The translations under genes were made by a program, and so were the position numbers. Under the pieces are notes generated by a model. That model was not told the DNA's origin. It saw only the letters and a program-made list of their open reading frames with translations, and searched no databases. This document shows, piece by piece, positions 34,335-48,254 of a stretch of DNA of 64,000 nucleotides (position 1 is its first letter; each line of letters opens with the position of its first letter). Origin of the DNA: Ceratorhiza oryzae-sativae (Eukaryota > Basidiomycota > Agaricomycetes > Cantharellales > Ceratobasidiaceae). The DNA is taken from positions 496,001 to 560,000 of the forward strand of contig JARWMV010000247.1 of the NCBI GenBank assembly GCA_030998015.1, read 5' to 3'.

Positions 34335-37300
34335 TCAAACGAGCCGCTGCGGGCGCGGGCGTGATGCAGAGGCTGCTCCTCGTCCTCTTCTTCGCCCATT
34401 GTGCCCACTTCGAGCGTCCCTCCTATTATGATTTTGACTATCGTAGCGAGGTGGGGCAGCATCCTCTGGGTTCCGGCTCACACGTAAACAACCTTGGGAG
34501 CCCTCGAGCAGAGGAGCAGAGTCTTGATCCGCGGTACCATTCAGATCAAGTACTAAACGGATAGCGCCACGCACACAATCAACACAAGCGTTAAATTAGA
34601 TTTAATTTCGGAAGACTTACCGGGGTGATGGGAGGGCTCGTTCTGTTTGTACTTGGGCTTTTTCACCTTATCAATCCACGGCCAGCTCTCTCGATCTACA
34701 TCTGCGAATTTGTCCAGGTCCAAGCCTCCTTCTGAGTATGCAGCCATTTCGGCGGTTAGCGACCGGACGGGAGGCAGGACCGACAAGAAGCTTTTGTCGA
34801 GCTCGGATAAGGCCGTAAGAACCGACCCAAGTGCAATCCAGCTGAAGCTAAATGCACCGGGTTTCTCGAAGTCAACAGCAGATGTGAGCGTGTATGCTCT
34901 CCAAGCTCGAGCGAGCCAGTCGTGAGGATCCCCGTCTGGTTCGCCTTGAAGTTCAGAACGAACGAAATCGGCCAGGTTTTCAGTCTGGAGTTTCATTCGT
35001 TCAACTAAGCTGTTATTTTCGGCGGACTCCAGGTTCGTGCCTAACATCACTTCAACTTCTGAGACCTGCTCCGTGGACTCGATGGCCACTGTGTGCGAGA
35101 CGCATATATGCTTGAGCTCCCGGGTGTAGCATCGGAGCAGTGCCTGGACCCAAGTTGTAGCCTCGGCATAAGTGAGCCTGATCTGAGACTGGTACTTGGC
35201 AACATGAGATGCCAGCACCTTCAAAATCGCATTGGAGTCAACAAAGTCCTGGGGGTCCTCGTCCCCGTCTCGTGCAGGGTTGGTTGGTGGCAGCTCGACC
35301 GCCCTAAAAAGCTTCCCAAGCACGCTAGAAAAAGGTAATCAAATGCGATGAGCTAGTTGATTTCGGACAAACTGACCTAGGACATTCATAAGAATAGCCA
35401 TCTGATGGATCCCGGCCATGTCCGACTTGCCAGTCTGGACGAAGACCCAGCCCGGTTACGGGGTGTGGGATGTTGTACCTGGGTTTCCTGATATCGTCTC
35501 CCGGTACAGGTATTCCGGTCTTGTAGAAGTCTACTGCCTAACGGGGAAGCTTAAGAATTGATATGTAGATGAAGCTGACGAGAACGCTCTACCATCGAGT
35601 GAAGCTCCGCATTTTTCAAGCAATTCATATTCCGGGCACCATCCCTCGAAGTCGCAGCAATAACAAGGTGGTTTACTGCAATCATGGCAACCTATACTTG
35701 CGTTGAGCTTATATCTGAAAATCGCTAGGCAAACAACTTACAGAATCTTTACAGATGAACTAGTCGAATGACACACTAAGATCAGGAATGTAATCAACCT
35801 ATGCATGGTTCTTACCTCGACCATGAAGTCAGCTACATCGTCCATCGTGCTGTGCGGGGATTCAATAATAGTCTCGCAGACTCGCTCTGAGTAGTACTGA
35901 CCTATCTTGGTTTATGGTTCTCAAGACTGCAGGGGGATACGAAGCCGGAGCGTATTCGTGCGGGGGCATCAGCTCGGGCAAACGGATAACGTTGAACAAG
36001 TCCTGATTAGCGTCATCAGTCCTCAGTAGCACGCTTTTGTTGATTATAAGCGTACCCCATCTGATGGCATGTATGTGAATAAATACCCAAGATGAATATA
36101 TTCTGAGCTACGCACCAAGATCTCCTCCTCCTAGCATGTTCGGCACAGGACGATAGCCACGGGATGAGAACACAATACAGTTCGGAAGGTGGTTACCTTC
36201 TCCCGCGAACGGTGAATCCTCGGGTGGCTCCCCGATGGCGTATAGCATTTGACAATCGCCCGGGTGGATATAGGGGCTGCGGGACACGAGAACCCAGCCT
36301 GTGATAAATATGGTTTGGCTTCTCCTGTCTTGTGATCGAAAGTTTGAACACAGGCTATGGCAAGATTCGTGATCCTTTTTTCGATGAACTAGCAATTATG
36401 ACACGCACCATAAATCTCCCTAGGTCGCAGGTATCCGTCCTCGTCGCATACGCCAACAAGAGTATGGCTATTGGGCACCTCTATTCTTGCCTTGTGTTTC
36501 AGCCCGAGTTTCACGTGGTATAATGTAGCATTCAAAGCTTGTGCAATCCAACCGATTGAACCCCCGGTTGGTTCAGCTCGAGTCCAAGACTAGAAAGTTT
36601 CCCGAAAGTGTCACCTAGGCGAAAGGGACGACCGAGACGGTTGGATACGAGCATACTGCGGACGCCATTGAATGTTTCCATGGCCTTTTTGATCGATTTG
36701 AGCGTTTCATCCATCAAGTGCTCGAACACGGCTGCATCCACGCCATTTGAGACAAGTAGCATGACTAGAGGCCTGTTTATTGTTAAAAGATAACCCAAAA
36801 CTCGGCGGATATGCTTTCCTACTCACCTATTCAAGAAACATGGGCTGGCTCGTTCAAACGCACGTGCGAATTTCGAAGCCGAGTTCGTTGGGCGCATCAA
36901 ATTTAGTCATCGAAGGACGAATACAAAGCTGTTCCCCTTCGAGCTTTGGGTCAATTCGCACCATGCCTTTGCATCCTAAAAATACACCATTAGTGTATAA
37001 ACTTAGTTAGCCTATTTATGAGACCTACCGCCCATCCGAAATTGGAACGCCGCAGGAATAGGTTCGTCTTTGTGGCGCTGCCTTCGTCGAGTCTCGGGCA
37101 TTCGAGCTACCCAGGCCTTCCAGACCTTCTCTGCAAGCGCGCGACTGATTGTACCGCATCCGTCTGAGAAGATCTCTCCGTCTGAGTTCATAATGTCTGG
37201 GATATACGTGATTTGTCGCGGGGATAGGATTATGGAGGGGTCAGTGGACGAAAACGCTTGGCTCATTCGAGCACCGTAACGAGCGGGGCAGCGAAGGACT

Positions 37301-46800: not shown

Positions 46801-48254
46801 AACCTCTTGCGCAGGATTTGTATAGTATCATTCAGCTACCCGAGCTCTTCCCACCCCACCAGTACGTTCCAGCGTTCTACCCTCCAAGCGTGCTCAAGTG
46901 CATCCAGTCAGAAAGGTCAGTACATGTCAAGTTTCTTTCGCCATTACTGACGAATCATAACTTCAACAAAGTACAATCAGTGATGTGGCGGACTTCGCAG
47001 TCGAGGTAAAGTTCATTCACCGATGGTTTATGTGCCTCAATTGAACATCCACTCTACTAGTTCATGAGAGACGACAACGTAAGACTAGACATTTCTGTCA
47101 TTTTCTTGAATTGAAAACAAAATTTACGATAGCTCGGTGCTGTCGCCATGAACCATCTTCTCCTCGCTTCCATGGCAAGCGAAGGTGCTCGTAGTTTCAA
47201 CTGCTTGGTCAATGCAGGGCTGCATGCGAAGGTGGGCGCACCGATTGAATGAATTATCAATCCTGACAGACGAATAATTCGATTCCTATTAGGCTATCGA
47301 ATTTATCAAAACTGGACTACCGGTGTACTTGGATGGAATCAGGCGACCCCGTTTCCGTGTTGATGAGTTGACTGGGCGAAATCTCTATCCCGACTGGACT
47401 TCCAAGCAGGGTGAAGACCCAGAAGATATGCGTTACTATGCGTGTCCAAGGTTAGTTTTCCGGGCTCAGTCCGTACCCGACACTGACACTCGTCCCTCAG
47501 TGTACTGGGCAGACTGTTCAGAGCAGTCGAGCCGCCACTAAATACCCCTGCCGACGACGATCTTGCGAGCCCTGACGGCCAAGAACAGCCCGGAACTATC
47601 CGGACAGTTTTAGCCGGTCACGTTGCCAAGTACCAAACGAAGATCAGGGACGCATACACTACGGCCACTCCTTGGGCTCAAGCGTTGTTTGCTCGATATA
47701 CACTCGAGCTGAACCATATCTGCATCTCACACAGCCCTCCTGGGCAGTCGACGAAGCGCATCTCAGAGATCGACGTCATGTTGGGCGCGAATCCCGGGTT
47801 GTCACCCAACTCGTCTCTCATAGAAAGAATGAAGGTCCAGACCCAAAATCTATGCGAATTTGTTCGTTTGCAGCTTGAAGGCGAAACGAATGACTGGCAC
47901 AAACGGCTCGCCCGCGCCTGGAGAGCATATACGCTGACCTCGAATATGAGCGACGAAGATTTTGGATCGTTCAGCTTTAGTTGGATCGCACTGGGTTCTG
48001 TGCTTGAAGCACTGAGCGAGCTTGATCCAAACTTTTTGAACCACCTTGATTCTGTTTGGCCTCTGTCGAGTACCGCTACAGCTCATCGCGAAAACGTTCA
48101 GGCGGACTCGTATGGGGTTGAAGGGGACAATCATATCGACTGGATTTGGGAATCATGTGACAGTGCGCGACCTGGCCGTGGTAGGGGCAGGGGTAATATT
48201 AGGGGCTTTAGTAAGCTTCTCTTTGTCCAACCTTTTAGATTTGGATCACTCTGA
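43851..48254 (+). CDS. RNA-dependent RNA polymerase 2, QDE-1/RdRP family, altered catalytic motif NLSGD
   Basis: Fourteen exons join in frame into 1226 aa: 43851-45027, 45085-45243, 45297-45347, 45405-45776, 45834-45981, 46038-46402, 46460-46699, 46757-46761, 46815-46915, 46972-47005, 47061-47078, 47133-47231, 47293-47450, 47501-48254. It matches RdRP-1 block by block (WEVAFQCEAILRNG, VTPTAIYLDG, IRCPARYGARMSQAFS, HSYTLVGVCDEDSYL, IHPGDCQRLYAIG, GEGNHLPNCVVFSSRG). The catalytic block reads GGGNLSGDLYSII: of the three Asp that bind metal in QDE-1-type enzymes only the last is kept, so canonical polymerisation is unlikely. The RRM-like N-terminus of RdRP-1 is absent; the first 100 residues are unrelated to it. 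The intron 45244-45296 begins with GC. The C-terminus has GRGRGRGNIRG. No frame break over 3.7 kb of coding sequence argues against a simple pseudogene. Confidence 0.85.
46757..46761 (+). other. 5-nt microexon in the RdRP-2 catalytic motif
   Basis: GCGGG lies between TAG and GTACGC, with introns of 57 nt (46700-46756) and 53 nt (46762-46814). It joins AAT CTA A to GAT TTG and gives N-L-S-G-D. Position, size and phase equal those of the microexon in RdRP-1. Confidence 0.8.

What the first reader, a model, noticed from the sequence alone, without database searches (positions are those of the whole stretch)
34335..48254. Divergent pair of RdRP genes, one with an altered active site (NLSGD) but an intact 14-exon frame
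RdRP-1 (-) keeps DLDGD. RdRP-2 (+) reads NLSGD, losing two of the three Asp that QDE-1-type RdRPs use for metal binding, yet its 14 exons join without any frame break into 1226 aa. A free pseudogene should have gathered stops. This suggests a maintained pseudo-polymerase, perhaps a scaffold, regulator or competitor in RNA silencing. The altered codons (GAT to AAT, GAT to AGC) need three substitutions, so a sequencing error is unlikely.
Basis: partly seen in the sequence, partly recalled or inferred. Interest (0 to 1): 0.88.

Follow-up and report, generated by a model that had tools for sequence, protein, structure and literature searches.

The report
Retained RdRP paralogue with eroded active site
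A Ceratobasidium-type fungus carries a full-length copy of an RNA-silencing polymerase whose metal-binding core has been replaced, and related species carry similarly altered copies, so it is probably a polymerase that no longer copies RNA but kept another job.

Summary
RdRP-2 (+) joins into one open frame (15 exons, 1179 aa) and reads NLSGD; two of three catalytic Asp are gone under any splicing choice. It also lost the invariant DPBB1 lysine (QDE-1 K743, now E) and the motif-1 Asp (now Y). RdRP-2 is not a recent local duplicate: it groups with proteins of Ceratobasidium AG-Ba, sp. 395 and sp. 428 (support 100/99; RdRP-1+RdRP-2 as sisters rejected, p-AU 0.003). Each member has changed at least one active-site residue that is invariant in the rows outside the clade. 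But AG-Ba keeps DLDGD: the Asp loss is RdRP-2's own. Branch omega is about 0.14, and constraint seems to persist between the two siblings sharing K743M. Best reading: a clade of retained, probably non-catalytic RdRPs, as suggested for Paramecium RDR3. Expression, activity and role are untested. In three copies the catalytic DG is coded by a 5-nt microexon; 8 of 25 related database proteins break there.

The parts
44031..48360 (+). RdRP-2, 15 exons, 1179 aa: 44031-45027, 45085-45243, 45297-45347, 45405-45776, 45834-45981, 46038-46402, 46460-46699, 46757-46761, 46815-46915, 46972-47005, 47061-47078, 47133-47231, 47293-47450, 47501-48210, 48278-48360. In-frame ATGs also at 43851, 43893 and 43923.
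   Evidence: Spliced alignment to relatives; joined CDS 3540 nt with one terminal stop; Pfam RdRP on piece 46003-46704
46693..46817 (+). Catalytic loop of RdRP-2, NLSGD instead of DLDGD, over two introns (46700-46756, 46762-46814)
   Evidence: equivalent to QDE-1 D1007/D1009/D1011
46757..46761 (+). 5-nt microexon GCGGG coding the second and third bases of the S codon and all of the G codon of the loop
   Evidence: same place in RdRP-1 (ATGGG) and in L012 (ATGGC)
45641..45643 (+). Motif-1 Asp replaced by Tyr (FSYGCG)
   Evidence: Asp in 47 of 47 covering rows outside the clade
45839..45841 (+). Equivalent of QDE-1 K743 replaced by Glu (GGCEG)
   Evidence: Lys in 48 of 48 covering rows outside the clade
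45244..45296 (+). GC-AG intron of RdRP-2
34378..39260 (-). RdRP-1, DLDGD kept, N-terminal extension present, 3' end uncertain; frameshifts in the body near 38418-38424, 36868-36871, 36534-36537 and 36307-36324
36056..36060 (-). 5-nt microexon ATGGG in the DLDGD loop of RdRP-1 (introns 36061-36115 and 36003-36055)

Best explanation
RdRP-2 is a cellular (QDE-1/RDR-type, Pfam RdRP) polymerase paralogue that has lost catalysis but keeps its frame, and probably its fold, under selection. Shown: two of the three metal-binding Asp and the invariant DPBB1 Lys are replaced, the frame is open, and it belongs to a clade with proteins of three other Ceratobasidium lineages, each of which has at least one active-site change of its own and a short N-terminus in its gene model. 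Inferred: RdRP-2 cannot make phosphodiester bonds. Inferred and untested: it acts as a non-catalytic partner in RNA silencing, either as a pseudo-subunit that dimerises with an active RdRP (QDE-1 is a dimer in which one site is thought to work at a time; PMC1750930, passages) or as an RNA-binding competitor of one.
For: NLSGD, K743E and motif-1 D-to-Y. Changing the first Asp of the motif alone left no detectable activity in a QDE-1 orthologue (PMC4861493, passages). QDE-1's Asp triad binds Mg2+, and Q736, K743 and K767 are called invariant (PMC1750930, passages). Clade support 100/99; RdRP-1+RdRP-2 as sisters rejected (p-AU 0.003). Omega on the RdRP-2 branch 0.14-0.15; omega=1 there fits 8.7 log units worse than free omegas. 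RdRP-2 keeps 93 of 106 near-invariant columns. If 12 of its changes at such columns had come neutrally, about 7 stops are expected; 4 of 2000 runs had none. P0018 and P0050, which share K743M, differ at 10 of 270 conserved columns against 31 of 272 others (p=0.0005 at the 0.8 cut).
Against: P0001 keeps DLDGD and K743, so the erosion is piecemeal and the Asp loss is not a clade trait. RdRP-2 evolves about twice as fast as RdRP-1 (dN 0.21 against 0.10; omega 0.15 against 0.06 for the rest), as a gene losing its function also would. Fitted dS per branch is about 1.4 to 4.4, so omega is a long average and says little about the recent past. P0018 and P0050 appear to have broken gene models. No near-identical RdRP-2 protein was found, whereas the L012 paralogue has a spliced one (P0002). 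No partner, binding or phenotype data exist. With other conservation cuts and row sets the P0018/P0050 contrast is weaker (p 0.003 to 0.14).
Confidence: 0.58

Rival explanations
1. RdRP-2 is a young pseudogene: it lost catalysis recently and has simply not yet gathered stops.
For: Faster branch and doubled omega; GC donor; no near-identical protein found; if only 3 hits are post-loss, 521 of 2000 neutral runs have no stop.
Against: 13 of 106 near-invariant columns are changed yet there is no stop or frameshift in 3540 nt, and the introns are 13 GT-AG and one GC-AG. Related proteins in three other lineages have their own active-site changes, and P0018/P0050 look constrained after K743M.
Confidence: 0.27
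2. RdRP-2 still polymerises RNA with an altered active site, using the remaining Asp and other ligands.
For: Third Asp, Q736 and K767 equivalents kept; the sequence aligns with a solved cellular RdRP over query residues 221-886.
Against: Loss of the first Asp alone abolished activity in a QDE-1 orthologue (PMC4861493). Here two Asp and K743 are gone.
Confidence: 0.05
3. The changes are sequencing or assembly errors.
For: The assembly seems to have indel errors: one HSP70 gene is frameshifted and RdRP-1 has four frameshifts.
Against: Base substitutions at four separate active-site codons within an otherwise clean 3.5-kb frame; clade members show changes at the same two DPBB1 positions.
Confidence: 0.03
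4. RdRP-2 is retained for a role outside RNA silencing.
For: Branchiostoma RdRPs, three of six without an intact active site, are transcribed but seem not to serve RNAi (PMC6396948, passages).
Against: Nothing here points to such a role; Piwi-domain and RNase III-domain matches are present in the genome.
Confidence: 0.07

Closest known systems
Paramecium tetraurelia RDR3
   Same: Highly divergent RdRP lacking conserved residues, suggested to be catalytically dead, yet needed for transgene-induced silencing (PMC4937312, passages)
   Different: Ciliate; no shared recent ancestry tested; requirement shown there, not here
Cryphonectria parasitica rdr4
   Same: Fungal RdRP gene without the DXDGD motif beside intact paralogues (PMC4182546, passages)
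   Different: rdr4 transcripts all encode a disrupted RdRP domain and the authors call it a pseudogene; RdRP-2 has the whole domain in one frame
Neurospora QDE-1
   Same: Same family and catalytic layout; Q736 and K767 equivalents and the third Asp kept
   Different: K743, D1007 and D1009 equivalents replaced in RdRP-2
Trypanosome deoxyhypusine synthase and its catalytically dead paralogue
   Same: Model for a dead paralogue that activates an active one (PMC3663545, abstract)
   Different: Unrelated enzymes; analogy only

Membership tests
Cellular RdRP (Pfam PF05183, QDE-1/RDR type) | RdRP domain by profile | tested here: met
   PF05183 on piece 46003-46704, 121.4 bits against cut-off 23.8; genome hits over cut-off at the locus
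Cellular RdRP (Pfam PF05183, QDE-1/RDR type) | Match to solved cellular RdRPs along the catalytic region | tested here: met
   7w84_A, E 1.1e-58, query residues 221-886
Catalytically active cellular RdRP | DXDGD metal-binding triad | tested here: not met
   NLSGD
Catalytically active cellular RdRP | Invariant DPBB1 residues Q736, K743, K767 | tested here: not met
   Q736 and K767 kept, K743 is E
Catalytically active cellular RdRP | RNA polymerase activity | not testable with these tools
   Needs purified protein
Non-catalytic RdRP required for silencing (Paramecium RDR3 kind) | Conserved catalytic residues missing | tested here: met
Non-catalytic RdRP required for silencing (Paramecium RDR3 kind) | Needed for a silencing pathway | not testable with these tools
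   No mutant or small-RNA data
Pseudogene | Disrupted reading frame | tested here: not met
   Open frame
Pseudogene | Neutral evolution since loss | tested here: inconclusive
   omega=1 rejected for the whole branch, but the time after the Asp loss cannot be isolated; simulation excludes neutrality only if most of the 13 changes came after it

The most novel reading that the evidence does not exclude
Ceratobasidium fungi have a whole lineage of RdRPs that shed the N-terminal extension and are giving up the active site piece by piece, each species in its own way, while the body stays under selection: obligate non-catalytic partner subunits or decoys that set the output of an active RdRP.
Probability: 0.33. 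Interest if true: 0.8.

Novelty: new variant of a known kind. Interest (0 to 1): 0.62.

Why it matters
If true, cellular RdRPs would have a pseudo-enzyme branch in fungi as well as in ciliates, and the question of what an RdRP can do in RNA silencing without making RNA would become testable in fungi with several natural steps of erosion to compare. In practice, 8 of 25 related database proteins lose the full catalytic motif where a 5-nt exon is hard to call, so motif-based calls of 'inactive' in this family need checking at the DNA level.

Tried and rejected
Recent tandem duplication of RdRP-1 and RdRP-2: rejected by the tree (the groups were named after a tree had been seen). That the motif is a splicing artefact: rejected, since the N codon and the first base of the S codon are exonic. 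That the seven other database proteins without a full DLDGD outside the clade are also dead: judged likely misannotation, since they break at or next to the microexon and keep the first Asp. Other fungal genomes: the tool holds no relatives of this genome. Near-identical RdRP-2 proteins in other isolates: none in the three allowed protein searches, which see only proteins of similar length. RNA families at gathering score and tRNAs: none in the window. P0018's own loop could not be resolved without its DNA. The N-terminal frameshifts of RdRP-1 vary with the template and are not counted.

Limits of the controls: the HSP70 control used one 430-aa seed from L026 against 5 loci, 4 of them informative. 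L028 kept one frameshift at all three penalties tried, L027 showed one at the lowest penalty only, L029 and L030 none. That L028 is the ER chaperone is recalled from its look, not tested. Of RdRP-1's four body frameshifts all stand at penalties 18 and 40; at 80 only one or two remain, plus one stop with one template. P0018 adds a fifth RdRP-1 frameshift, and P0015 adds two stops. The Fisher test for concentration at the active site (3 of 6 against 11 of 101, p 0.029) was made after seeing the changes; D1009's column was added by hand because missed microexons leave it too thinly filled for the 106. The 44 rows that define the 106 columns include P0001 and P0018. Indels were not modelled in the simulation.

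Full report
What is there. The window lies in a 48.8-Mb genome of 253 contigs. The best named protein matches are from Ceratobasidium and Rhizoctonia. The genome holds 24 RdRP-domain matches, which I group into seven gene loci on six contigs, 13 Piwi-domain matches and 4 RNase III-domain matches. RdRP-1 (-) and RdRP-2 (+) point away from each other, 4-5 kb apart.

RdRP-2. Spliced alignment to relatives gives 14 introns of 50-67 nt, 13 GT-AG and one GC-AG, and a 1179-aa protein without frameshift or internal stop. Seven of eight database templates gave no event; P0018, which looks misannotated in the same stretch, gave two stops and a frameshift. The loop reads NLSGD.

RdRP-1. It keeps DLDGD, and its alignment to templates that have the N-terminal extension starts at their residue 1. 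It keeps 105 of 106 near-invariant columns. Four frameshifts in the body recur with all nine templates as far as each reaches and stand at penalties 18 and 40. Controls: L012 has no event against P0001, P0002 and P0003, one stop against P0015, and a frameshift and a stop near its end against P0012. L011 has one frameshift near its end at penalty 40 with two of three templates, and none at 80. One of four informative HSP70 loci, L028, has a frameshift at every penalty tried. I take L028 for the ER chaperone, a gene unlikely to be broken, so the assembly probably has single-base errors. RdRP-1 has more than the controls, but pseudogene and error cannot be told apart here.

Active site. Mapping to QDE-1 rests on the profile alignment to 5fsw and the residues named in PMC1750930 (passages). 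Outside the clade, motif-1 Asp is kept in 47 of 47 rows that cover it, K743 in 48 of 48, K767 in 49 of 49, Q736 in 47 of 48, D1007 in 46 of 48, D1009 in 40 of 44 and D1011 in 40 of 43 (the last two are blurred by missed microexons). RdRP-2 has Y at motif 1, Q, E, K at Q736, K743, K767, and N, S, D in the triad. P0001 (AG-Ba) has S at motif 1, R at K767, and an intact DLDGD. P0018 (sp. 395) has N at motif 1 and M at K743, with an unresolved loop. P0050 (sp. 428, partial) keeps motif-1 D and has M at K743.

Clade. A 32-row tree puts the four together with 100/99 support and RdRP-1 as sister on a shorter branch (0.26 against 0.83 for RdRP-2). A 14-row tree agrees and rejects RdRP-1+RdRP-2 (p-AU 0.003), RdRP-1+P0001 (0.0009), RdRP-1+P0018+P0050 (0.006) and RdRP-1 with all three (0.003). 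The branches are long, so the tests share the model's pull. N-terminus: P0001, P0018 and P0050 have 38, 16 and 16 residues before the LKAI column. RdRP-2 has about 42 from the ATG at 44031 and about 102 from the farthest in-frame ATG, and its alignments to templates with the extension begin at their residue 97 or later (P0017 97, P0002 122, P0011 193). Rows that I take as complete have 121-211; several rows, some outside the clade, are shorter and may be fragments, so part of this difference could be annotation.

Selection. On 1079 codons of RdRP-1, RdRP-2 and L012, omega is 0.148 for RdRP-2 and 0.064 elsewhere (twice the log-likelihood gain 4.9); omega=1 on RdRP-2 is 8.7 units worse than the free model. 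Fitted dS per branch is about 1.4 to 4.4, so this is a long average. Neutral simulations: 12 hits at near-invariant codons come with 7.0 stops on average, 4 of 2000 runs with none; 3 hits, 1.6 stops, 521 of 2000 with none. P0018 against P0050 over the first 548 residues of P0050: 10 of 270 conserved and 31 of 272 other columns differ at the 0.8 cut (p 0.0005); other cuts and row sets give p from 0.003 to 0.14. Three pairs of presumably active relatives differ at 0-1 of 66 conserved columns. That K743M precedes the split of the two is inferred from their sharing it.

Microexon. The loop's DG is coded by a 5-nt exon in RdRP-1 (ATGGG), RdRP-2 (GCGGG) and L012 (ATGGC); the model of the distant paralogue L011 shows none. 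P0002, identical to the spliced L012 at 1375 of 1381 residues, comes from a source whose shorter entries P0047 and P0052 seem to read into introns, so I infer that it derives from RNA and shows the exon in use. P0046 and P0047 look like genomic read-throughs across the same place. Of 25 Ceratobasidiaceae proteins that reach the loop (P0002 placed there by the tree), 17 have DLDGD and 8, P0018 among them, break there, all 8 keeping the first Asp. A 2024 paper states that functional microexons had not been described in filamentous fungi before (PMC11121469, abstract and passages).

Prior work. Nine paper searches showed, in the 10 to 20 papers listed by each, no description of a catalytically dead RdRP lineage in Basidiomycota; the library lacks most subscription journals. 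The nearest are Paramecium RDR3 (PMC4937312) and C. parasitica rdr4 (PMC4182546), both seen as passages. A Ceratobasidium isolate was reported with thirteen RdRP-like sequences (PMC9610886, passages).

Judgement. Loss of catalysis is near certain from chemistry and precedent; retention under selection is likely; the role is a guess guided by the QDE-1 dimer model and by dead paralogues elsewhere.

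Noticed in passing
46757-46761 (+), 36056-36060 (-), L012: 5-nt microexon coding the DG of the catalytic loop in the three copies read at DNA level; 8 of 25 related database proteins break there.
   Followed up: partly
48834-49862 (+): Tc1/mariner-like transposase frame (DDE_3, HTH_Tnp_Tc3_2), about 0.5 kb downstream of RdRP-2.
   Followed up: no
41763-43415 (+): Between the two RdRPs, overlapping frames that look by eye like a broken F-box-type gene; the one piece tested (41790-42233) had no Pfam hit.
   Followed up: no
L028 (G000 C11, near 280.62 kb): HSP70 gene with a frameshift in this assembly: a warning for frame-based calls in this genome.
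   Followed up: partly
P0034 (Rhodosporidiobolus nylandii): First Asp of the RdRP motif replaced by Gly (GLDGD), outside the clade studied.
   Followed up: no
L012 and P0002: Own-genome RdRP paralogue nearly identical to a protein from an unnamed public source; a candidate for the active enzyme of this fungus.
   Followed up: partly
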